From positions 1-64,000 of the forward strand of contig JAPPNN010000027.1 in assembly GCA_028873815.1 (NCBI GenBank): a stretch of DNA of 64,000 nucleotides, read 5' to 3'. The translations under genes and the position numbers were made by a program. The DNA comes from Gemmatimonadota bacterium. GTDB lineage: Bacteria; Gemmatimonadota; Gemmatimonadetes; Longimicrobiales; Gaopeijiaceae. Under the pieces are notes generated by a model. It saw only the letters and a list, made by a program, of their open reading frames with translations, made no database searches and was not told where the DNA came from. Positions 29,308 through 61,695 of this stretch are shown here, in pieces; positions within the stretch are counted from its first letter, which is position 1; each line of letters opens with the position of its first letter.

Positions 29308-30593
29308 TCAGGTCGGATTCCGCCTTTGTGCTCCAATCGACAGCCCCACCGCGTTGAGGGTGTCAACGAGTGCGTCGATATCGCGCTCGCTCGTTCGCCC
29401 GTTGGTTATGCAGGCTCGCAGCACTGTTTTGCCCTCGAAGACTGCGGTTGACACCCAGAACCGGCCGTCCCTGCGAACGGCATCGACGTAGCTCCGAACG
29501 GCCTCATGGCCCTTGGGCGGCACGAGACAAGCGACCGCCATGGGGGAGTCGTTCGCGAGCGACCAACCGTCGCGCTGCAACCGCCGTGCGAGTCTGTCCG
29601 CCAGTCGAATGGCGCGCTCGACGTGGCCGGCGTATCCCGTCCAACCCGCTGCCGCGAGTGCAAGGAACAGCCGCAGGCCGACGAATCGGCGCGACCACTG
29701 GCTTGAGTTGACGAAGAAGTCCTTGGCCGTGTCGCTCCTGGGCATGTAGCTGGCGTCAACCCGGAAGACCTGAGCGGCGACATCCGGTCTGGAGGTCAGG
29801 AACATGCCGGCTCCCATGGTCGTTGCAAACCACTTGCGGGCGTCGATCGTGATCGAGTCCGCCCGCTCGATGCCCTTGAGAGCACCGCCGGTATCGCTGG
29901 CAATCAGCGCACCACCCCATGCCGCGTCGACGTGGAACCACATGCCGTGCTCCCTGGCCAGTTCGCGGCAGCGGGTCAACGGATCGACCATGCCCGCATT
30001 GGTGGTGCCCGCCGTCGCCGCGATCATGACAGGCATGCGCCCGCTGAAAATGTCAGTTGCAATCGTTTCGGCCAAGGCATCGGGGTCCATGCGTCCTCGT
30101 CCGTCGGTCTGGATCAGCCGGACCGCGTTGCGCCCGATGCCCCCGGCGTGAGCGATCTTCAGCCAGGCCAAATGGGATCCGGCATGCCAGCCCTGCGCGC
30201 CACTGCCCGGATCACGTGCAGCTCGATCTCCACCGCCGCCGGCGCATGCGAGTGCACGCAGATCTGAGGGTTGAACGAGGAGGCGATCCGGTCGGCGCAC
30301 TCGGAGGCGAACGTCAGCGCAGGGTTGAACAAGCCAAGATAGCCCGGATGCGTCACCCGTACCGTGCCGGTCTCCAGGCCGTCGATCACCCATTCCGTCA
30401 AGCCCGCCAGCTCTCTGGGCCGGTCGAACTTCATGTTTCGCAGCTCCCGCAGCCATTCGCCGGACGGACCAGCGGGTACTACGTCGCGCGACGGCATGAG
30501 ACGCCGCGACACCCCGAGGCGTTCAGTGAGCGCGTGGTCCGCCGCCGTCCGGGAATCATGGTCCGGAAACAGCGAATAGTGCGGATCGGTCAT
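29308..30593 (-). pseudogene. Broken group II pyridoxal-dependent (aromatic amino acid) decarboxylase
   Basis: N-terminal part 30593-30159 (GYLGLFNPALTFASECADRI, then MPDPIW) is in one frame; the C-terminal part (HLAWLKIAHAG to the end) is in another. The join at about 30165-30175 runs straight from the PIW motif to the HLAWLK motif, so the intervening about 50-60 residues, including the Gly-rich PLP-phosphate site, are missing and the frame is shifted. The PLP lysine region TIDARKWFATTMG survives. ATG at 30593 overlaps the upstream stop (ATGA). The product cannot be a working decarboxylase. Confidence 0.85.
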
Positions 30594-31447
30594 CGGACGG
30601 CTTGACCGCTGGCGAACTGCCGACTCGCCTCCCACGCCAGCATACAGCGTTTCCGCGTGGCACCCCCGGCGTAGTCGCCCGTGATCCCGCCCGCGCGGAT
30701 CACGCGATGGCAGGGAATGAGGAAGGCGATCGGGTTGCTGCCAACCGCGCTCCCCGTCGCCCGAGCCGCCTTCGCGCTACAAACCTCTTCGGCCACGCGA
30801 CCGTAGGTGACGACCTTCCCGGGAGGCACGCGCAGCAGGGCGCGCCAGACGGCCAGTTGGAAGTTGGTCCCACGCACATGGACGGTCAGCGGGGGACTCT
30901 CGGCTCCGAAGGGCGCCGAGAAGATGGACCGCGCCAGTGCTGTTGCCGTCGATTCGTCGCCTTCCAGCGACGCCCGTCCCCAGGCCCGGCGGAGAGCCTC
31001 CTTCTCGGCGGAAACATCCCCGTCGGCCACAAACCCGACCCGGCAGACACCGCGCTCGGTCCAAGCGACGAAGACAGGCCCAAACGGTGATTCCCCGGTG
31101 CCGAACCGGATCGTCAGCCCCGCACCCCTGCTCCGATACTCGCCCGGGGTGACGGCCTCCACGGTTACGAAGTGATCGTGCAGCCTGCCCGGGCCAGAGA
31201 GCCCGCTACCATGGGCCGTCGCGAGCACGGACTCTGAGCTGTCGAGTAGCGTCTTCGCGTGCTGAACGGTAAGGAATTCGAGAAAGCGCTTTGGCGTGAC
31301 GCCGGCCCAGCGCGAGAACAGGCGATGCAGATGGCTTTGGCTCAGACCGATATGCGCCGCCAATTCCGCGAGTTCCGGCTGGCGCTTGCGATGCCTGGCC
31401 AGATAGCGAATGGCAGCCTCGATTCGGTCGTAGTCGGTCGTGTTCAT
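30590..31447 (-). CDS. AraC-type regulator fused to O6-methylguanine-DNA methyltransferase (Ada-like)
   Basis: 285 residues. Residues about 8-100 are an AraC helix-turn-helix (LAELAAHIGLSQSHLHRLF); the rest is the DNA repair methyltransferase with acceptor Cys in FLIPCHRVI and the RVAEEVCS helix. The N-terminal zinc/phosphotriester domain of full-length Ada is absent, as in the common shorter Ada-like proteins. It repairs alkylated guanine by transferring the alkyl group to itself and may control its own gene. Head of a two-gene unit with the broken decarboxylase. Confidence 0.9.
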   Translation of the reverse strand: MNTTDYDRIEAAIRYLARHRKRQPELAELAAHIGLSQSHLHRLFSRWAGVTPKRFLEFLTVQHAKTLLDSSESVLATAHGSGLSGPGRLHDHFVTVEAVTPGEYRSRGAGLTIRFGTGESPFGPVFVAWTERGVCRVGFVADGDVSAEKEALRRAWGRASLEGDESTATALARSIFSAPFGAESPPLTVHVRGTNFQLAVWRALLRVPPGKVVTYGRVAEEVCSAKAARATGSAVGSNPIAFLIPCHRVIRAGGITGDYAGGATRKRCMLAWEASRQFASGQAVR

Positions 31448-31614
31448 ACGGAACTCCGAGAATAAATCATCGATGGGGGACCTCCTGCAAAACGTGATCA
31501 TTCCCGTTGCTGAAATCGACCCGATCCTTGCTATGCGATGTCGACGCGAGAGGCACTCCCGTCGGCATCCGAGCGGTTCTCGGCGCAACGACTTCGACTG
31601 TGTCGTGGCTGGCG

Positions 31615-31670
31615 CGCGCAAACTCCAATCGGGGCGGCCGGATTCGAACCGGCGACCTCCTGCTCCCAAA
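31615..31670 (-). repeat. Inner att site: exact 56-bp copy of the tRNA-Pro 3' region
   Basis: Identical over 56 bp to 47418-47473; 42 of these bases are the tRNA-Pro 3' half, the other 14 lie downstream of the tRNA. It marks the left end of the 15.8-kb mobilizable element (31671-47417). Confidence 0.93.
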
Positions 31671-31993
31671 TCCCCCACACGGGACGCGAAATCACGGCAA
31701 GAAATCTCATAAGTCTAACTGGGACTGCACGATCTGCGCTTCTTGCCGTTGGGGCGTGTCAGGGTCCGCCGGACTGAAAAAGCCGGAAAATCGGGTCAAA
31801 TGGAGGGCATTTGGAGGGGTCCACAGCGGTGTGCCAATCCGTTCAGCCACCCCCGTCCGGTAGCTTTTAGAACCATCCACACCAGAATCGTTCGACGGGC
31901 CGTCGAGATCGTGTGCCGCCACCAACGATGGCCGCCGGTCAATCGCCCCCGATCGCGGTTCGGTTCTCCTCACGTTTGCGGGATCCCATGGGG
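31671..31993. other. Non-coding left end of the mobilizable element
   Basis: Contains the second copy of the element-end repeat at 31697-31759 (TAAGTCTAACTGGGACTGCA and following). Beyond it I see no gene or RNA up to the stop of the E2-E1-JAB-patatin gene. Confidence 0.6.
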
Positions 31994-34900
31994 CTACAGA
32001 TCCGGTAGATAGTACGCAACCAGAAACCTGGTCAGAACCTCTCCACGGAGAGCTATTCGATCGAGATCTGCTCCCTTCATGGCCGCGAAGTCCGTCGGAT
32101 AGTCCTTCACCTCGGCGCGCTTCGGAAGTTCTGGTGGTATCCACGGCAGCTTGCCGTCTTTCTGTCCGAGATAAGAGAGCACGAAACCGGAGATGTCCCC
32201 CCACTCGGCGAGCCGGTGCAAGCGATTCCTCGTCGCGTCTTGCACCTTCCTGAAAACGGTCAGAAACGAGCGGGACATCCGGGTCGGCCAACACATGGGG
32301 TAAGTGTCGTCGTCAAACAAGCCGGCACCAGCGTCGCAACAAATGATGTATTCCGGGCTGAAGACGTTGGTGCTGATCGACGGCTCCCGACCAGGCTCCA
32401 TCGGGGAAACGCCGAGATTCTCGAAAACACCGCCATCGGTAAGGAGGACTCGCGTCGGGTCCGTGGTGGTACCCTTCTTCAGGAAACGATACTCCCGGTC
32501 CAGCGCCGGGAGCAGAGCCGGGTAAGCCGCGGATGCTGCAACCGCGTCGGCAACCAAGGCCTCCTCGGGAGCGATCCTCCCGAAACGCCAGCAACCGCTT
32601 TGCCTACTGCCGAACCGGAAGGCCGACCCGGTTCGCAGTTCGGTGGCGTTGATTACCGCATCCAATGAGTCTCGGGCCACGTCCCCCATCAGCGTGTTTC
32701 TGAACAACGACCTTCTCAGAGTCTCGCGGAACGCTTCGGTTCGGCTGAACGTGCGAACCGGCGGAGTCTTCCAGAGACCAGTAAGCGACCGCGTGATGGA
32801 AGCAGCACCGATTGGAAGCTGGGCCTGGACGGTCTTCCCTATGGCTCTCAGTCGCAACGCTTCCCGCACGATGTCACGCTGAAGTCCTCGGCGCAGGAGT
32901 TCGACCACCCGACCGTCGAAGTCGGAGAACGACTCGCTCGAATAGGCGTACATCGCCGCGATGACGGATCCGCCCGAGACGCTTGAAATGACCTGTAGCC
33001 GGGCTAGCAGCCCGAGGTCATGGAGAGCACGAAAGCACCCGAGGTGGAAAGCGATCGCTCGCGAACCTCCGCCGGAGAGGGCAAGCCCGACATCTCGTGG
33101 ACTCACCGGAGCTGGTTCAACAGAGATCGTCTCGGAGACATCTTCCTTGATGTGGTACACGCACCGTGGCCGCAGATTAGTCCGAAACACATGCGCCCCG
33201 AGAAGGGGATCGCTGTCTGGATCTCCTGAGAGGATCAGCAATACGAGCGTGCGGCGGGACGACTCCGTTCCGTCTAGAAGCCGGGCAACGGTGTCCAGGT
33301 CGATCGTGCTCGGCCAGGGTCCGGCCCTTGGGTGTGTGTGCCAGCTACCAAGGCACTCCACAGATCCACGGAAACGATCGTGCTTCGCATCGGCAGATTC
33401 ACGCGTACCCAGGATACCGCAAGTGAAATGCCTGTCGGACGCATCGCTGTCCGGCGGAGGCCCGTCGACATCGGTTATCCAAATGACCGATGCCGCTTCG
33501 TTTATCTCGCCAAAGATCAATCCTCCGGTCTCGACGGATGGGTCAGTAGTCCGGGCTGAGCGCTTTGCCCACGCTCGCATCTCTCTGACGGCCGCCTGCG
33601 ACACTCTGACGGCGTATCGCCCACTCTGCTCTTGGGCGGCGTAGTCCCGCGGCCACGCGAAGTGGTGTGTTGGTCCAGACTCTTCAACGAACCATCCAAA
33701 AGCAGTGTGTTGCTCGTCTGGTGCTGACAGAGACCGCGCGATGGCGTTCAGCATTCGCGCCGAGAGGCTCGCGAGATCAGCGTTCGAGCCTATGAACGTG
33801 GGTTCCGAGCATCCAGGCTCTGGCTGAAAACGCTCGTCGGCCGACGACTCTGGCCAAAAATCCTCACGTGGCCCTTTGAGTCGGGTATTTCGACAGGCTT
33901 CGAGCTTGAGTCGCCTGACAACATCAAGTGGCCCCCCGCTGTGGGACGGGTTCGCGAGGGTTGCCATCCCCGTGGCCGCGCGGCTGTCGATGGCCATGGA
34001 GCCGATAGGCGGACGCGAGTCGGTCCTTTGGAGTCTCTGTTCGAGGCTCATCCTGACAGCCCGCGCCGCGGTGCAGTCGATCACCAGATCGACATCCGGT
34101 ATCGCATTGCTCCCGCTTATCCGTGGGATCAGATCCGCGTCCAAGGCCTCGACCGTGACATCAGGGTTGATGCGCTTGAGGCGATCCGAAAGTGCAGCGA
34201 CTTTCGGCTTCCCGATGTCTGCATCCTCGAACCCCTGGCGCACTAGGATTCCTGGAACGACCAACCCATTGTCCGCCAGCTGTACGTGCCTGACACCAGC
34301 CCGGGCTACGGACTCCGCTACGTGTGTCCCGACAGCCCCACATCCCCAGATAGCCACCCGCTTCCCGCGAAACCACGCCATTGGCGAGGAGTGGTCACGA
34401 CGCCACGTGACTTCCGGGCGCATCTCGCGAACACTGCACCATCCTACCTTGGCTCGGACCGACCACTCGACCACGGCTTCAATCGCCGCGTTTCGTGAAA
34501 CCGGGTCGTCGCCGTCCCAAACGGTATCCAATTCGCGGAGTTTGTCCGCGTCGGCACCCGATATCTCCCAGACCGCAAGGTGCTGAAGGTAAGGTCCGCC
34601 GGCTTCGATGCGACGCATGGGACTGCCCAAGACCACCAGCACCGGTGTCCCCGACTCACTCCTATTGGCCAACGAAGCGAACGTTAGCACGAACGGCCTG
34701 TAGTCCACGCCGTGGCGCTCCAGTTCCTTCAGGAGGTTACGGACGGATTCGGGGTATTCGAAGGGCAGCGGCCTGTGGAGCAGGATCGCCGGAGCCCGAT
34801 TGTCGAGGCTGCCCAGGAGGTGCTGTGACCAGCCGGTGATCTCCGTCCGACGATTCCGCTGGCGAAGCTCAGCGAATCCGAACCAAGTGGATTCCCTCAC

Positions 34901-35371
34901 CCGAGGTGTGTCCGCTTTCGGAACCACCAAGCGATCCGCCGTCACATATGCAACGGGAGGGTGGAGGGGCGCATCGTCGGGGTCGAGGCGGTTCAGCGCG
35001 GCGTCGCGAATCCACGTGTCCAGTCGTTCGATCAGACCGTACATGCCGTCCTGCGGCCGCCAATCAGCCGAACTCCGATAGAGACAAAGACTGTGCCCCC
35101 ACTGGACGTGAGGGAATCCGGCGAAGCGACGGTGGAGGGTGACTACGGACGGGCGCTTGTAGGGAAAGGTAGGCGGGACCACTATGAGGAATCGCTCCCG
35201 AGCCCGTACCCGCAGTCCGTCCGCGACCCGCTCGTGACCGTCAAACCCAATGCTTATCTGGAATCGGTATCCGTTCGACCACCTTTCTCCGCTCTGGACC
35301 ACAATCGTGCCATCGGATGCGGCTGCGATCTCCCATAGCTGTTCCTCGGCAAGTTGGAAGGCACGGTCCAT
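31994..35371 (-). CDS. E2 - E1 (ThiF) - JAB peptidase - patatin phospholipase fusion
   Basis: 1125 residues holding four enzymes in a row. Residues about 1-135: E2-like UBC fold with FPYKRPSV and catalytic C96 in GHSLCLY. About 330-545: ThiF/E1 domain with nucleotide loop GCGAVG (343-348), D367/N368, RQGFEDADIGKPK and a probable thioester Cys C521 in EPGCSEPTF. About 585-735: JAB/JAMM isopeptidase with E614 (ETGGLIFG), H678, H680, S688 and D691 all present. About 760-1120: patatin lipase with oxyanion GGGSR (767-771), nucleophile S799 in SVSGGS and D979 in TDGGVFENLG. E2-E1 and JAB match CBASS Cap2 and Cap3, patatin matches CapV effectors, but no CD-NTase is present. ATG follows the upstream stop with no gap. 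I know of no characterised protein with this layout. Confidence 0.9.
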   Translation of the reverse strand: MDRAFQLAEEQLWEIAAASDGTIVVQSGERWSNGYRFQISIGFDGHERVADGLRVRARERFLIVVPPTFPYKRPSVVTLHRRFAGFPHVQWGHSLCLYRSSADWRPQDGMYGLIERLDTWIRDAALNRLDPDDAPLHPPVAYVTADRLVVPKADTPRVRESTWFGFAELRQRNRRTEITGWSQHLLGSLDNRAPAILLHRPLPFEYPESVRNLLKELERHGVDYRPFVLTFASLANRSESGTPVLVVLGSPMRRIEAGGPYLQHLAVWEISGADADKLRELDTVWDGDDPVSRNAAIEAVVEWSVRAKVGWCSVREMRPEVTWRRDHSSPMAWFRGKRVAIWGCGAVGTHVAESVARAGVRHVQLADNGLVVPGILVRQGFEDADIGKPKVAALSDRLKRINPDVTVEALDADLIPRISGSNAIPDVDLVIDCTAARAVRMSLEQRLQRTDSRPPIGSMAIDSRAATGMATLANPSHSGGPLDVVRRLKLEACRNTRLKGPREDFWPESSADERFQPEPGCSEPTFIGSNADLASLSARMLNAIARSLSAPDEQHTAFGWFVEESGPTHHFAWPRDYAAQEQSGRYAVRVSQAAVREMRAWAKRSARTTDPSVETGGLIFGEINEAASVIWITDVDGPPPDSDASDRHFTCGILGTRESADAKHDRFRGSVECLGSWHTHPRAGPWPSTIDLDTVARLLDGTESSRRTLVLLILSGDPDSDPLLGAHVFRTNLRPRCVYHIKEDVSETISVEPAPVSPRDVGLALSGGGSRAIAFHLGCFRALHDLGLLARLQVISSVSGGSVIAAMYAYSSESFSDFDGRVVELLRRGLQRDIVREALRLRAIGKTVQAQLPIGAASITRSLTGLWKTPPVRTFSRTEAFRETLRRSLFRNTLMGDVARDSLDAVINATELRTGSAFRFGSRQSGCWRFGRIAPEEALVADAVAASAAYPALLPALDREYRFLKKGTTTDPTRVLLTDGGVFENLGVSPMEPGREPSISTNVFSPEYIICCDAGAGLFDDDTYPMCWPTRMSRSFLTVFRKVQDATRNRLHRLAEWGDISGFVLSYLGQKDGKLPWIPPELPKRAEVKDYPTDFAAMKGADLDRIALRGEVLTRFLVAYYLPDL

Positions 35372-36499
35372 TCAGTTCCGGCCGTAGTCGTGAGTGGATG
35401 GAGGTGGCCGGTGTGGGCCACGCGCCTCATCTGCCGCTTGGGAAGCGGACTTGGCCGCCGCTGCGACCCCAACGAATGTGACCTCGTCCCCCTTGAGTTC
35501 GGCCACGATCGGGTCGTCCTGATCCATGGTACAGAGAAATGAATCGGTGACAGTCTCGTACTGCTCCTTGGCCTTGACGTGGGGCGGGTCGTCCCCCGCC
35601 TTGTTGGACGACGGCACGGACTTGGAGCTGGACACCACCCTGTTGGGAGTCTGCGAGGCCTCGTCCATTTCGTCGACGATATGCTGCTTCAGTTCTTCTT
35701 CGTCCTCGCCTTCATCCTTCCAGTACATGACCGCCTTCGAACAGTGGTGGGGCGCCAAGAGGACATTCCAGGCGAGATCATCGGATTCGCTGACCTCGAA
35801 GATCCGCTTGACGACAGGGTACGAGAGGTCGCCGAGGAGCAACGCCCGGAGTTTTTTGGTTCCTTCCTTCAGGGTCAGCTGCATGCCGAGGCTCGTGTCG
35901 TTACGTTCTCCAGCGTCGTCGTCCTTGAACGGGGCGTGTACGAAGACGCGAAGGTGATCCGACACGTCCTGCTCGTCGATCGTCGTCAGTTCGTTCCCGG
36001 GAGTCGTCAGGCGGTCTTCCGGAAACCCCTCGAAGTCGTCTTCTTCCAGTATGTCGGAGTAGCCGAAGATGCGTACCCGGTCGCCGGCGCCCGGATCGCT
36101 GCCCTCCGCTTCGATCGTCTTCTCGACGCGCCGTTCGGCCTCCTTCTTGAAGGCCTCGGCATGGTCGGAAAGATCCTCAGTGTACTCTCGGAAGATGCGC
36201 GGTGTGAACCACAGTTCTCCTATGTCGACTTCATCGAGAAGTCTCTCGAACCCCCGACAATGATCCTGATCCGGGTGCGTGAGGGCGAACGCGGACAGAT
36301 ACGGACGGCCATCGACCTTGGGCAGGCGCTCGACCAGCTCGTCGATGACAGGCCAAGCCGCTTCATCGTCGTCCTCGGCCTTTTCGAGGTGGTTCAGATC
36401 CACTTGGAGGTGGGTGTCGGAATCGATGACGACCGTAGTGCTGTCGCCGTTTTCGACGGGCCAGAAGACCAGCCCGCGGCTCGGTAGCTCAAAGCTCAT
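35372..36499 (-). CDS. ComEC-like metallo-beta-lactamase-fold hydrolase
   Basis: 375 residues. Metal-binding motif THPDQDH (H75, D77, D79, H80), H188, NDTSLGM (200-206), LLGD (D224) and APHHCSK (H251, H252) match the ComEC/Rec2-type metallo-beta-lactamase fold, whose members act on nucleic acids or phosphodiesters. No signal peptide, so cytoplasmic, unlike ComEC. The C-terminal about 100 residues are charged and low in structure. ATG at 36499 has GGAGAA 8 bp before it. The gene abuts the E2-E1-JAB-patatin gene (TGA directly followed by ATG), so both are surely made together. Confidence 0.88.
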   Translation of the reverse strand: MSFELPSRGLVFWPVENGDSTTVVIDSDTHLQVDLNHLEKAEDDDEAAWPVIDELVERLPKVDGRPYLSAFALTHPDQDHCRGFERLLDEVDIGELWFTPRIFREYTEDLSDHAEAFKKEAERRVEKTIEAEGSDPGAGDRVRIFGYSDILEEDDFEGFPEDRLTTPGNELTTIDEQDVSDHLRVFVHAPFKDDDAGERNDTSLGMQLTLKEGTKKLRALLLGDLSYPVVKRIFEVSESDDLAWNVLLAPHHCSKAVMYWKDEGEDEEELKQHIVDEMDEASQTPNRVVSSSKSVPSSNKAGDDPPHVKAKEQYETVTDSFLCTMDQDDPIVAELKGDEVTFVGVAAAAKSASQAADEARGPHRPPPSTHDYGRN

Positions 36500-36707
36500 T
36501 TGGTGTTCTCCATGTACAGGGTTGGTGGAGTGGAGTACCCGCGCAGTCGACCGGGCCACCATCGTTCGATCCTTGCGTAGGTGTTAGCTCGGGCCGAGGG
36601 TATTCTGGTGGGCGCGGGGGCATTGGAGGATGCTTGGGCGGACGAGGTGGGCTTGGTGGATGGTCAGGTTGGCGCGGAGGTCTTGGCGGAAAATCAGCGT
36701 ATGACAT
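36489..36707 (-). CDS. Small proline-rich protein heading the E2-E1-JAB-patatin operon
   Basis: 72 residues. Residues 6-40 are Pro/Arg-rich (PPRPPRQPDHPPSPPRPP), the rest is polar. A strong ribosome site GAAGGAG lies 7 bp before the ATG, and the 3' end overlaps the next start by 11 bp, so translation is likely. There is an internal Gly-Gly (residues 50-51) 21 residues from the end. It has no ubiquitin-like fold that I can see; it could be a substrate or tether for the conjugation enzymes. Confidence 0.65.
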   Translation of the reverse strand: MSYADFPPRPPRQPDHPPSPPRPPKHPPMPPRPPEYPRPELTPTQGSNDGGPVDCAGTPLHQPCTWRTPNEL

Positions 36708-44513: not shown

Positions 44514-46074
44514 GTTTCTCGCGCACGGGACCGGGTCGGCCCGGGCTGCGGCCAACTACCTCCTCGGGGAGCGGGACGCGGCCGGGAAGCCGCGCGAGGG
44601 CGTCGAAGTCCTGCGGGGGAACCCGGAAATGGTGGCCGCGGTGGCCGACTCCCTCGACTTCGAGCACAGGTACACGTCCGGCGTGATCGCCTGGGCGCCG
44701 GACGACCGCCCCACCGACAAGCAGATCGAGGCGGTTCTGGACGCCTTCGAGAAGACGGCCTGGGCGGGGCTGGAGCCCGACCGGTACGCATGGGCGGCGG
44801 TACTGCACCGCGAGGGAGGTGGCGGTGCCCACGTCCACGTCCTCGCGGCTCGGTGCGACCTTGAAACCGGGCGGAGCCTGAACATTGCCCCTCCGGGCTG
44901 GCAGAAGACGTTCGATCCGCTCCGCGACGCCTTCAACCACGAGCACGGCTGGGGCCGTCCCGACGATCCGGACAGAGCCAGAGTGCAGCAGCCCGGACAC
45001 CGCGCCTACATCGAGGCAGCGCAGCTGCGAACCGGGCCCCGGCTCGAATCCTCCCCTCGCGACCTGATCCGGGACTACCTGCTCCACCGCGTCGAGCACG
45101 GAATGGTGAGCAACCGTGCCGATGTCGTCTCCGCGCTGCGGGGGGCGGGCCTCGAAGTGCCGCGCCAAGGCGAGGACTACATCACCGCGCTGGACCCCGA
45201 GACCGGGGGCCGGTGGCGGCTGAAAGGAGAACTGTATGGAGAGAACTTCGACCGCGAACGACTTGAGCGACCGACTGAAGCGACGGCTGGAGAGCGAACG
45301 CAGGGAGATCGAGGAGTTGACCGCGAGCGAGCTGAAGCGGCTCGCCGAGAACTCGCGGCGCGTCGCGAGGAACGCGCTCAGTACCATCGAGCGCGATACG
45401 GAGGAGGCGACCGGGCGGATGCGCGAGTTGCTGGCCAAGGCGTGGCAACGGCCGCTGATCGTCGGCCTGAGCCTCTGGCTCGGTTTCTTCGGCGGAAGCT
45501 GGGCGACGATGCGCTGGTTGGCGGGGAGCATCCAGACCCGGATCGAGACGCTCGCCGAACTGGACTACGACATCCAAGACGCGCGGCAGACGCTCGCGCA
45601 ACTGGAGGTGGACACCTGGGGGGTCGCGCTGCTGGAGATCGAGGGAGAGCGGGTCGTGGTACTGCCGGCGGGGACGCTGGACAACACGGGCTGGACGTGG
45701 CGCGATCAGCCTGCCGTGAAGCTATCGAACAGGTGAAGGAGGTCTATGACCGCATTAGAGGAGCAGTTGACGAGGGCCTTGCGGAGGTTGTCCGAGCAGT
45801 ACGAGCGGGAACAGCGGCGGCACTCCGGGCAGATCGAAGCCTTGCACGAGTACGCCGAAGTCTTGCGAGAATACGTCGAAGCCTTGAGGCAGCACGCCGA
45901 GCGGCAGAGCGGGGAGAACGAAGTCTTGCAGCGGCGAATCGAGCGGCTCGACGGGCAAGTGACACGCTTGGCCGACTATTATGGGACATCCACCGCCGCG
46001 AGACCGAGCGGCCGCGGCTGGTGATAAGGCCGCCGACACGCGGGCCGGACCGCGATCAGGGTCCGAGCCGTTGA
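44503..46074 (+). CDS. Relaxase, ColE1 MbeA-like (MOB-P)
   Basis: 523 residues. N-terminal nicking domain with ANYLLGERDAAG, VLRGNPEMV, YTSGVIAWAPDDRP and the metal motif AHVHVLAARCDLETGRSLN; H in LHREGGG plus HVH give a three-His site where ColE1 MbeA has HEN. A mid-domain GLEVPRQGEDYITAL...RLKGELYGENF matches MbeA closely. The C-terminal half is Arg/Ala-rich because it is also coding in two other frames (mbeB and mbeD). Nicks oriT and leads the strand during mobilization; the element has no mating-pair genes and needs a helper. Confidence 0.88.
   Translation: MHVKFLAHGTGSARAAANYLLGERDAAGKPREGVEVLRGNPEMVAAVADSLDFEHRYTSGVIAWAPDDRPTDKQIEAVLDAFEKTAWAGLEPDRYAWAAVLHREGGGGAHVHVLAARCDLETGRSLNIAPPGWQKTFDPLRDAFNHEHGWGRPDDPDRARVQQPGHRAYIEAAQLRTGPRLESSPRDLIRDYLLHRVEHGMVSNRADVVSALRGAGLEVPRQGEDYITALDPETGGRWRLKGELYGENFDRERLERPTEATAGERTQGDRGVDRERAEAARRELAARREERAQYHRARYGGGDRADARVAGQGVATAADRRPEPLARFLRRKLGDDALVGGEHPDPDRDARRTGLRHPRRAADARATGGGHLGGRAAGDRGRAGRGTAGGDAGQHGLDVARSACREAIEQVKEVYDRIRGAVDEGLAEVVRAVRAGTAAALRADRSLARVRRSLARIRRSLEAARRAAERGERSLAAANRAARRASDTLGRLLWDIHRRETERPRLVIRPPTRGPDRDQGPSR
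45236..45736 (+). CDS. MbeB-like mobilization protein nested in the relaxase gene
   Basis: 166 residues in a different frame wholly inside the relaxase gene. Long coiled coil (DRLKRRLESERREIEELTAS), then a membrane segment (PLIVGLSLWLGFFGGSWATM) and a second short domain. AAAGGAG is 7 bp before the ATG. ColE1 has the same nested arrangement of mbeB inside mbeA, so I take it as real. Confidence 0.82.
   Translation: MERTSTANDLSDRLKRRLESERREIEELTASELKRLAENSRRVARNALSTIERDTEEATGRMRELLAKAWQRPLIVGLSLWLGFFGGSWATMRWLAGSIQTRIETLAELDYDIQDARQTLAQLEVDTWGVALLEIEGERVVVLPAGTLDNTGWTWRDQPAVKLSNR
45746..46024 (+). CDS. MbeD-like coiled-coil protein nested in the relaxase gene
   Basis: 92 residues, almost entirely coiled coil (LHEYAEVLREYVEALRQHAE), in a non-relaxase frame inside the relaxase gene, with GAAGGAGG 5 bp before its ATG. 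Matches mbeD of ColE1-type plasmids in position and character. Confidence 0.78.
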   Translation: MTALEEQLTRALRRLSEQYEREQRRHSGQIEALHEYAEVLREYVEALRQHAERQSGENEVLQRRIERLDGQVTRLADYYGTSTAARPSGRGW

Positions 46075-46214
46075 CGATGGCGTCCAGTCGCTTGCCACCC
46101 GAACGCCGCAGCGCCCGGCGAGCCGTCAACCGCCCGTCTGGCGGAGAATCCCTCCCGGCGCGAAGTTTCAACCGCGCAGATCGTGCAGTCCATCGAATCG
46201 AGAGGAATCGAACG

Positions 46215-47384
46215 ATGGCACGCACGAAACGAAGTCGGCGCTCGTACAGCGCCGGCGAATGGGGCCGGAATCGGGTCCGAGTCTTTACCGATCCCAGAAC
46301 CGGCATCATCCAGGTCGAGTGGCGCGAGAACGGGCGCAGGCTCACCCGGTCGCTGAAGCACCGTGACTGGAACCGGGCCAAGAGGCAGGCGGACAAGATC
46401 GCCGCCGGACTCGCCGAGCCCACGACCAAGGACACGGCGGAAGCCAAGTCCGAGTCGCTCACCCTGGAGAAGCTGTTTGACATCTACGGTGGAGAGGTTA
46501 CCCCCACCAAGAGCAAGCGGTCGCGGAACCACGACCGGGCGATGATGCGGAGGTTCCTTCGGTTTTTCGGGAGGCACCGGAAGGCCGAGACGCTTTCGCA
46601 ACGCGACTGGGACCGCTTCATCCGGGCGCGACGCGCGGGAAAGGCCGGCGGTAGCCGCAGGCCCGTGTCCGAACGGACGATCGAATACGATCTGAGGTTG
46701 CTGCTCGCGGTTCTCAACTGGGCTGCGAAGTCGAGGGACGAGGAAGGACGACTCCTCCTCGAATCCAACCCGCTCCGGGGCCTGAAGCTGCCCAAGGAGA
46801 AGAATCCGAGGCGGGTGGTTCTCACCCAGGCAGAGTACGAAGCGTTGCTCGGGGTGTCCGCACAGGTGAACTGGCGGTTCCGAGTGGCCTTGGTGCTCGC
46901 CCACGAGACCGGGCACCGAATCGGTGCCATCCGGCAGCTACGTTGGGCCGACATCGACCTCGATGGCCGGACCATCAGGTGGCGGGGAGAGCACGAGAAG
47001 ACCGGTTACGAGCACCGGACGCCGGTCACCGAAAAAGCGGTCGTCGCCTTGGAGGAAGCGAGGAGGCACAACCCCGGGATCGGGGACGCGCCGCTGCTGA
47101 CCGCGCCGAAGGATCCCTTCGCGTGCATGAGCCGGTCGCTAGCTCGGGATTGGTGGAAGAAGGCCGAGACGCTTGCGGCACTGGAACCCAAGCGCGGCCG
47201 CGGCTGGCACTCGCTGAGGCGGAAATTCGCCTCCGATCTGATGGACCTGCCGCTGAAGGTGCTCTGCGACCTCGGCGGCTGGAAGACCGCCGAGACGGTC
47301 CTCCAGTGCTATCAGCGCCCCGACGAGGACCGGCTCAGAAAGGCCATCGAGGAGTACCGGGGGGTTGGCTCCGCGTCCAATTAG
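46215..47384 (+). CDS. Tyrosine recombinase (integrase) of the tRNA-Pro element
   Basis: 389 residues. Central core-binding domain (about 75-190), then a catalytic domain with Arg in GHRIGAIRQLRW, HSLRRKF (HxxR), W in GGWKTAETV at the usual second His place, and nucleophile Tyr in VLQCYQRP. ATG at 46215 has AGAGGA before it. It ends 34 bp before the exact att repeat and 48 bp from the tRNA-Pro gene, the classic position for an integrase acting on that tRNA. Confidence 0.92.
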   Translation: MARTKRSRRSYSAGEWGRNRVRVFTDPRTGIIQVEWRENGRRLTRSLKHRDWNRAKRQADKIAAGLAEPTTKDTAEAKSESLTLEKLFDIYGGEVTPTKSKRSRNHDRAMMRRFLRFFGRHRKAETLSQRDWDRFIRARRAGKAGGSRRPVSERTIEYDLRLLLAVLNWAAKSRDEEGRLLLESNPLRGLKLPKEKNPRRVVLTQAEYEALLGVSAQVNWRFRVALVLAHETGHRIGAIRQLRWADIDLDGRTIRWRGEHEKTGYEHRTPVTEKAVVALEEARRHNPGIGDAPLLTAPKDPFACMSRSLARDWWKKAETLAALEPKRGRGWHSLRRKFASDLMDLPLKVLCDLGGWKTAETVLQCYQRPDEDRLRKAIEEYRGVGSASN

Positions 47385-47417: not shown

Positions 47418-47473
47418 CGCGCAAACTCCAATCGGGGCGGCCGGATTCGAACCGGCGACCTCCTGCTCCCAAA
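47418..47473 (-). repeat. att site at tRNA-Pro (right end of element)
   Basis: 56 bp identical to 31615-31670. It covers tRNA-Pro from the anticodon loop to the 3' end (47432-47473) and 14 bp beyond. The crossover probably lies within the anticodon loop/stem, as for other tyrosine integrases using tRNA genes. Confidence 0.93.
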
Positions 47474-47505
47474 GCAGGCGCGCTACCGAGCTGCGCCACG
47501 CCCCG
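47432..47505 (-). tRNA. tRNA-Pro (anticodon UGG)
   Basis: 74 nt, full cloverleaf: acceptor CGGGGCG/CGCCCCG, D arm GCGC...GCGC, anticodon stem CCTGC/GCAGG with loop TTTGGGA (anticodon TGG), T arm GCCGG-TTCGAAT-CCGGC, discriminator A, no encoded CCA. Intact despite being the integration target, because the element restores the 3' half. Confidence 0.96.
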
Positions 47506-61598: not shown

Positions 61599-61695
61599 TG
61601 GCGGGGGCGTGTGGGAATCGAACCCACCCACCCGGGTCTTAGCCGGGCGCACTGGTTTTGAAGACCAGACGGAACACCAGTCCCGATCCGCCCCC
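61599..61695 (-). tRNA. selC: tRNA-Sec (selenocysteine, anticodon UCA)
   Basis: 97 nt. Acceptor GGGGGCG/CGCCCCC, long 6-bp D stem (CGGGAC/GTTCCG), anticodon stem CTGGT/ACCAG with loop CTTCAAA (anticodon TCA), long variable arm (GCCCGG...CCCGGGT), T arm GTGGG-TTCGATT-CCCAC, G discriminator and encoded CCA. These are all marks of selC. Its presence implies selA, selB and selD elsewhere. Confidence 0.95.

What the first reader, a model, noticed from the sequence alone, without database searches (positions are those of the whole stretch)
31994..36707. E2-E1-JAB-patatin single-chain protein with a ComEC-like MBL partner: candidate new ubiquitin-like defence system
One 1125-residue protein carries a complete E2 (C96), E1/ThiF (GCGAVG, C521), JAMM isopeptidase (E614, H678, H680, S688, D691) and patatin lipase (S799, D979). 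CBASS uses separate Cap2 (E1-E2), Cap3 (JAB) and CapV (patatin) plus a CD-NTase; here the CD-NTase is absent and the effector is welded to the conjugation machinery. A metallo-beta-lactamase protein of ComEC type abuts it, and all lie as cargo in a mobilizable element. Inference: conjugation to or removal from the MBL or small protein gates membrane damage by the lipase during infection.
Basis: partly seen in the sequence, partly recalled or inferred. Interest (0 to 1): 0.93.

Follow-up and report, generated by a model that had tools for sequence, protein, structure and literature searches.

The report
Ubiquitin-style defence operon with built-in lipase
A bacterial mobile element carries a two-gene operon in which a ubiquitin-type tagging machine is fused to a membrane-cutting lipase, and its partner enzyme ends in a short conserved tail that looks like the handle the machine grabs, so a known but little-studied defence system can be given a testable mechanism.

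Summary
One 1125-aa chain carries E2, E1, JAB and patatin domains with all named active-site residues, and a ComEC-like MBL gene abuts it. Both lie in a 15.8-kb tRNA-Pro-integrated element with relaxase and integrase genes. The system is not new: both genes pass the NCBIfam cut-offs for "anti-phage 6A-MBL", and E2-E1-JAB plus MBL was listed as operon type 6a in 2006. The 72-aa "small protein" is not supported.

Three things I did not find in the papers I could search. (1) The MBL ends in a low-confidence tail with a conserved Gly plus a few variable residues; 45 of 45 clusters at 60% identity have a Gly in the last 7 residues. Such a terminal Gly marks CD-NTases as Cap2 substrates in type II CBASS, and 4 of 4 CD-NTases opened beside a Cap2 end GRAG. 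So the MBL is probably the conjugated protein. (2) Patatin is common: 81 of 106 systems, 28 fused, a share raised by the query. (3) In 14 of the other 25 a membrane protein takes that slot. Conjugation, lipase triggering and defence are inferred.

The parts
31994..35371 (-). E2-E1-JAB-patatin single-chain protein, 1125 aa (6A-MBL cap2_3 with C-terminal patatin)
34919..35371 (-). E2 domain, residues 1-151; catalytic C96 at 35084-35086
   Evidence: Pfam Prok-E2_A; C96 and H88 invariant in 30 sequences
33641..34435 (-). E1/ThiF domain, residues 313-577; C521 at 33809-33811
33227..33595 (-). JAB/JAMM domain, residues 593-715; E614, H678, H680, S688, D691
   Evidence: Pfam Prok-JAB; residues invariant in 30 sequences
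31997..33097 (-). patatin lipase domain, residues 759-1125; S799 at 32975-32977, D979 at 32435-32437
   Evidence: Pfam Patatin; patatin structures incl. PlpD, CapE, CapV
35372..36499 (-). ComEC-like MBL-fold protein, 375 aa from the likely start (ORF reaches 36562)
35375..35389 (-). C-terminal DYG-RN of the MBL: proposed E1-recognised Gly373 and short removable extension
36489..36707 (-).
31615..31670 (.). left attachment repeat (3' part of tRNA-Pro), next to the operon's end
47418..47473 (.). right attachment repeat, overlapping the intact tRNA-Pro
47432..47505 (-). tRNA-Pro (TGG), integration site
45981..47384 (+). tyrosine integrase of the element
   Evidence: Phage_integrase 62 bits
44503..46074 (+). 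relaxase (MobA/VirD2-like)
   Evidence: Relaxase 26.8 bits, cut-off 24.6

Best explanation
This is a 6A-MBL anti-phage operon built on the plan of type II CBASS, with the MBL enzyme in the place of the CD-NTase. The JAB domain trims the few residues after Gly373 of the MBL. The E1 domain adenylates that Gly and passes it through C521 to E2 C96. E2 then joins the MBL to a cell component, most likely protein lysines, as Cap2 does with cGAS. JAB removes it again. Conjugation primes the MBL. When infection activates it, the patatin part of the same complex attacks membrane lipids and the infected cell dies. Shown: gene content, intact sites, the conserved Gly at the end of a low-confidence tail, the Cap2-type fold, and the exchange of patatin for a membrane protein in the same slot. 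Inferred: the conjugation, the MBL's reaction, how the lipase is switched on, and the defence outcome.
For: Both genes pass the NCBIfam anti-phage 6A-MBL cut-offs (365 vs 320 and 282 vs 220 bits).

Tail conservation: G373 is invariant in 32 aligned MBLs (31 of them 41-89% identical to the window's), near the end of a poorly conserved stretch with pLDDT under 50 at residues 364-375. All 120 listed nearest MBLs have [FY]G followed by 0 (13), 2 (87), 3 (13), 4 (6) or 14 (1) residues. In 45 of 45 clusters at 60% identity a Gly lies within the last 7 residues, against 18 of 44 of the neighbouring E2-E1-JAB proteins and 5 of 25 stand-alone patatins. On the larger side of the deep E1 split the end is [FY]G in 82 of 85 MBLs; on the other it is RAG in 14 and [HQ]G in 11 of 25 (loci not on the tree were put with the larger side).

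CBASS parallel: Jenson et al. 2023 (PMC10097602, passages) found a terminal Gly/Ala with variable penultimate residues on CD-NTases beside Cap2/Cap3, and showed thioester and conjugation through it. Four of 4 CD-NTases that I opened beside a Cap2-like gene end ...GRAG. E2-E1 is 32% identical over 577 columns to a CBASS Cap2. The top solved folds for E2-E1 are Cap2-CdnD02, including Cap2 bound to the CdnD02 C-terminus.

A relative of the MBL without E1 (L139; no E2-E1-JAB match at E 1e-3 in 5.7 kb downstream) lacks the Gly tail.

Effector slot: of 106 systems 53 have a separate patatin and 28 a fused one; 14 of the other 25 have a multi-TM protein there.
Against: No experiment. The short C-terminal motif could serve another interaction. 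The four CD-NTases are all from Actinomycetota plasmids, and no JAB gene is annotated in those four stretches. The E1-less case is a single one. Gly is also common near the ends of the E2-E1-JAB proteins (18 of 44), so the count alone is weaker than the aligned conservation. The loci are not independent, and most were drawn with a patatin-type MBL query. Patatin activation without a cyclic nucleotide has no direct evidence. The anti-phage label comes from NCBIfam, whose source I could not read.
Confidence: 0.65

Rival explanations
1. The MBL is a target or a free enzyme (nuclease or phosphodiesterase), not the modifier. The E1-E2 acts on some other protein encoded elsewhere, and the MBL tail is only a docking peptide for the complex.
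For: ComEC MBL and RNase Z/J folds are among the nearest, so an own enzymatic role is likely. Docking would also conserve a tail.
Against: The conserved residue is a Gly at or within a few residues of the terminus, as an E1 substrate needs, and what follows it varies in length and sequence. No ubiquitin-like gene was found in the window's operon.
Confidence: 0.17
2. The MBL is conjugated to a lipid rather than to protein, as Atg8/LC3 is, and the patatin domain works on or next to that lipid.
For: The aromatic-Gly end, followed by Arg in 78 of the 120 listed nearest MBLs, resembles Atg8 (recalled). A phospholipase is in the same chain. Jenson et al. raise lipid conjugation for cGAS (passages).
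Against: The tail type follows the E1 clade, not the effector: patatin systems with RAG tails (L005, L137, L164) and patatin-less ones with FG/YG (L062, L065, L074, L120) exist. The MBL's fold matches are metallo-beta-lactamases, not ubiquitin-like proteins.
Confidence: 0.1
3. Housekeeping or stress-response lipid remodelling on a mobile element, not defence.
For: No phage assay here; the related Bub operons have not been shown to protect against phage (PMC13373217, passages).
Against: Sporadic presence (above the model's cut-off in 8 of 395, 7 of 398, 2 of 296 and 7 of 296 genomes, each draw including one genome chosen for having it), occurrence on plasmids, the CBASS-like plan, and a WYL regulator gene upstream in 5 of the 14 plasmid loci read.
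Confidence: 0.08

Closest known systems
6A-MBL system (NCBIfam NF058523/NF058524; operon row 6a of Iyer, Burroughs and Aravind 2006, PMC1779556)
   Same: E2-E1-JAB chain next to the specialised MBL; both proteins over the curated cut-offs.
   Different: C-terminal patatin fused on; the cap2_3 model's match stops at residue 713 and the 2006 main text holds the word patatin 0 times. I found no terminal Gly of the MBL described there (passages and section 14).
Type II CBASS (Cap2, Cap3, CD-NTase, CapV/CapE)
   Same: E1-E2 fold and JAB; patatin effector; conserved terminal Gly on the partner enzyme; RAG ends shared with part of the 6A MBLs.
   Different: No CD-NTase. An MBL sits in its place; Cap2, Cap3 and effector parts are one chain. 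BLASTP against one CapV gives a best stretch of 45 columns, E 0.021.
Bil and Bub operons
   Same: Bacterial E1, E2 and JAB in mobile operons (Bil: passages of PMC11354881; Bub: recalled).
   Different: They carry a dedicated ubiquitin-like protein (Bil; Bub: recalled); none found here.
ComEC MBL domain
   Different: No competence channel; a conserved Gly tail is added.
Atg8/LC3 (recalled)
   Same: Aromatic-Gly end with a short removable extension.
   Different: Unrelated fold; lipid conjugation untested.

Membership tests
6A-MBL | cap2_3 protein over NF058523 cut-off | tested here: met
   365.4 vs 320 bits, residues 52-713
6A-MBL | MBL-fold protein over NF058524 cut-off | tested here: met
   282.4 vs 220 bits
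6A-MBL | E2-E1-JAB order with adjacent MBL gene | tested here: met
6A-MBL | anti-phage activity | not testable with these tools
   needs phage challenge
Type II CBASS | CD-NTase in the operon | tested here: not met
   no PF18144 match in the own genome (86% complete); in 50 relatives' genomes 14 matches, none inside the fetched stretch round the system
Type II CBASS | Cap2-like E1-E2 | tested here: met
Type II CBASS | Cap3-like JAB peptidase | tested here: inconclusive
   JAB domain with invariant sites, but Cap3 model NF050170 only 29.4 bits, cut-off 200
Type II CBASS | effector switched on by a cyclic nucleotide | not testable with these tools
   patatin fold only
Bil/Bub | own ubiquitin-like (beta-grasp) protein gene in the operon | tested here: not met
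   no gap between the two genes; the only small ORF has no family match and was found at 1 of 6 distinct near places
ComEC | MBL fold of ComEC type | tested here: met
ComEC | competence membrane channel in the same protein | tested here: not met
   375 aa, taken up by the MBL fold (model residues 6-346 aligned) and tail; no Pfam match of any kind
Atg8-like lipidation | ubiquitin-like fold | tested here: not met
   model confidently an MBL fold
Atg8-like lipidation | covalent link to a membrane lipid | not testable with these tools
   -

The most novel reading that the evidence does not exclude
A bacterial counterpart of autophagy-type lipidation: an enzyme (the MBL), not a ubiquitin-fold protein, is processed at an aromatic-Gly end by JAB and joined by the fused E1-E2 to a membrane lipid. 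The patatin domain of the same chain then uses or releases that lipid anchor, so tagging the membrane and cutting it are one machine.
Probability: 0.09. Interest if true: 0.93.

Novelty: new variant of a known kind. Interest (0 to 1): 0.62.

Why it matters
It turns a named but, in the papers I could search, mechanistically blank system into a direct prediction: the MBL is conjugated through its own C-terminal glycine. If true, Cap2-type machinery has been paired with at least two unrelated enzymes (CD-NTase and MBL), which would make "E1-E2 conjugating a whole enzyme by its tail" a more general principle of bacterial immunity. The exchangeable third slot (patatin or a multi-TM protein) would be the killing arm, and the fusion suggests that lipase and conjugation machinery act in one complex.

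Tried and rejected
Separate ubiquitin-like modifier: rejected. No such gene was found in the operon, and the 72-aa ORF was matched at 1 of 6 distinct near places.

CD-NTase merely lost here: rejected. 10 of 50 relatives' genomes have a PF18144 match, 14 places. None lies in the fetched stretch round the system. PF18144 may miss some CD-NTases.

Tail type as a sign of patatin: rejected; it follows the E1 clade.

Single origin of the fusion: not supported. The quick tree (86 rows) needs 6 changes of the fused label, 3 forced by starred branches; long rows L117, L163, L158 and L133 are unsure. Fisher tests ignore kinship and are not relied on.

Naming the multi-TM protein: six tested in Pfam gave no match over a cut-off, six in PADLOC none, six in NCBIfam none. 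Ten of 14 form one BLAST-linked family. TM counts come from a hydropathy script only.

A profile search of A1 against PDB sequences gave only designed ankyrin proteins, probably compositional. Phage records: no match in 50,697. Viral contigs: 1 of 17 pattern matches encodes a relative.

Literature: ten searches. '6A-MBL' is in 0 papers; none of the listings showed a paper on the patatin form or on MBL conjugation. Subscription papers and preprints are mostly not held, so this is no proof of absence. PMC11153139 holds none of 'metallo', 'MBL' or 'C-terminal glycine'.
Full report
1. The observation. Pfam gives E2, ThiF, JAB and patatin over their cut-offs. In an alignment of 30 sequences all the catalytic residues named are invariant. 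The MBL gene ends in TGA directly followed by the ATG of the big gene. Its likely start is an internal ATG at 36499 behind GGAG. AlphaFold2 models are usable (mean pLDDT 78.3 and 85.2). The 72-aa ORF is not supported as a part.

2. The surroundings. The operon lies just inside the left end of a 15.8-kb element bounded by 56-bp perfect repeats that include the 3' part of a tRNA-Pro gene. A tyrosine integrase and a relaxase are at the other end. The genome is an incomplete assembly of 4.29 Mb, 86% complete. Among its nearest protein relatives those that bear a name are mostly Gemmatimonadetes, one of them Candidatus Palauibacter.

3. What it is. NCBIfam's two 6A-MBL models are both passed. Iyer et al. 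2006 describe the pair as operon type 6a: a "triple module" E2-E1-JAB protein, in most operons next to a metallo-beta-lactamase (PMC1779556, passages and section 14). [quoted passage not shown] So the system was known in outline. I found its mechanism described in none of the papers that I could search.

4. The patatin form is widespread. A protein search scored 7998 candidates, of which 1146 had E up to 1e-10. Of the 120 listed all carry ThiF and patatin and 116 carry all four Pfam domains, by my reading of the list. A genome scan confirmed 145 relatives of the MBL and kept the best 80 loci, whose titles name Gemmatimonadetes, Actinomycetes, Proteobacteria, Chloroflexi, Bacteroidetes, Planctomycetaceae, Dadabacteria and others. 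Of 110 MBLs linked to an E1 frame, 106 had an E2-E1-JAB stretch of 400 aa or more: 53 have patatin in the next gene, 28 have it fused, and 25 have none by my rule. That share is raised by the patatin-type query. Among the 24 genomes over the family model's cut-off (four of them the chosen centres) I see patatin in the slot or fused in 11; two more (G067, G864) run off the contig before it.

5. The slot. Of the 25 systems without patatin, 14 have a 207-271-aa protein with 2 to 4 hydrophobic stretches there, 2 have a second MBL-fold protein (L129, L163), 2 run off the contig (L058, L070) and 2 have a short E1 frame (L098, L134; L134 has a patatin frame further on). In 5 (L038, L135, L158, L161, L167) I identified nothing on the same strand; L135 has a patatin frame on the other strand, 0.3 kb away. 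Ten of the 14 membrane proteins are linked by BLAST into one family, and its members sit on both sides of the deepest split of the E1 tree. The slot therefore behaves like the exchangeable effector slot of CBASS.

6. The tail. The MBL fold ends near residue 345. The last 30 residues are modelled with low confidence and are poorly conserved, except for a Gly at or just before the end. Among the 120 listed nearest MBLs, at least 71% identical to the window's, the end is always [FY]G plus 0, 2, 3, 4 or 14 residues. Among 110 MBLs beside an E1 gene, 82 have [FY]G, 14 RAG and 13 [HQ]G in the last 12 residues. The one other (L064) is a split reading frame whose second piece ends KGFG. One search looked at 140 loci, controls and unrelated MBLs included. 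It found 117 MBL frames over 40 bits, 7 of them not counted as linked: three weak paralogues (L016-L018), the second piece of L064, L080 (contig end), L107 (missed by the distance rule), and L139. L139 has no E2-E1-JAB match in 5.7 kb downstream and no Gly tail. After clustering at 60% identity, 45 of 45 MBLs have a Gly in the last 7 residues, and 14 end exactly in Gly (one, L042, two residues after its TYG). The neighbouring E2-E1-JAB proteins give 18 of 44 and 0 of 44; stand-alone patatins give 5 of 25 and 2 of 25.

9. What I would not claim. Lipid conjugation in the manner of Atg8 is a lead only: the aromatic-Gly end and the Arg after it (78 of 120) fit, but the tail type follows E1 kinship rather than the presence of a lipase. 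The defence role rests on NCBIfam's name and on context.

Noticed in passing
L139 3939-5132: A 6A-family MBL, 51% identical to the Phaeobacter one, with no E2-E1-JAB match in 5.7 kb downstream and without the terminal Gly: a natural E1-less case.
   Followed up: partly
L129 7802-8866; L163 9492-10562: In two loci the third gene is a second MBL-fold protein, weakly like AVAST Avs1a and ComEC.
   Followed up: partly
L039 9433-10197, L040, L062, L065, L074, L120, L130, L132, L162, L166: An unnamed 3-4-TM protein family sits in the effector slot on both sides of the deepest E1 split; no Pfam, PADLOC or NCBIfam match over a cut-off among those tested.
   Followed up: partly
L038, L161, L162, L163, L164: A WYL-domain regulator gene stands divergently upstream of the MBL in 5 of the 14 plasmid loci read; Pfam scans of ten of the window's genes found none.
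   Followed up: no
(plasmid records): 244 of 72,556 plasmid records match the Klebsiella 6A MBL, 127 of them Klebsiella and 25 Escherichia; 138 of the 244 are typed conjugative.
   Followed up: no
L108 and L109: Streptomyces scabiei 87.22 carries the patatin-type operon near both chromosome ends; G864 has the MBL near both ends of its contig.
   Followed up: no
L056 5262-7134: Weak E1 and JAB matches in separate frames upstream of the MBL, perhaps a second conjugation operon next door.
   Followed up: no
window 61599-61695: tRNA-SeC gene on the - strand.
   Followed up: no
window 30590-31678: Gene with AraC-type HTH and O6-methylguanine methyltransferase domains at the left end of the element; its listed frame runs into the left repeat.
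   Followed up: no
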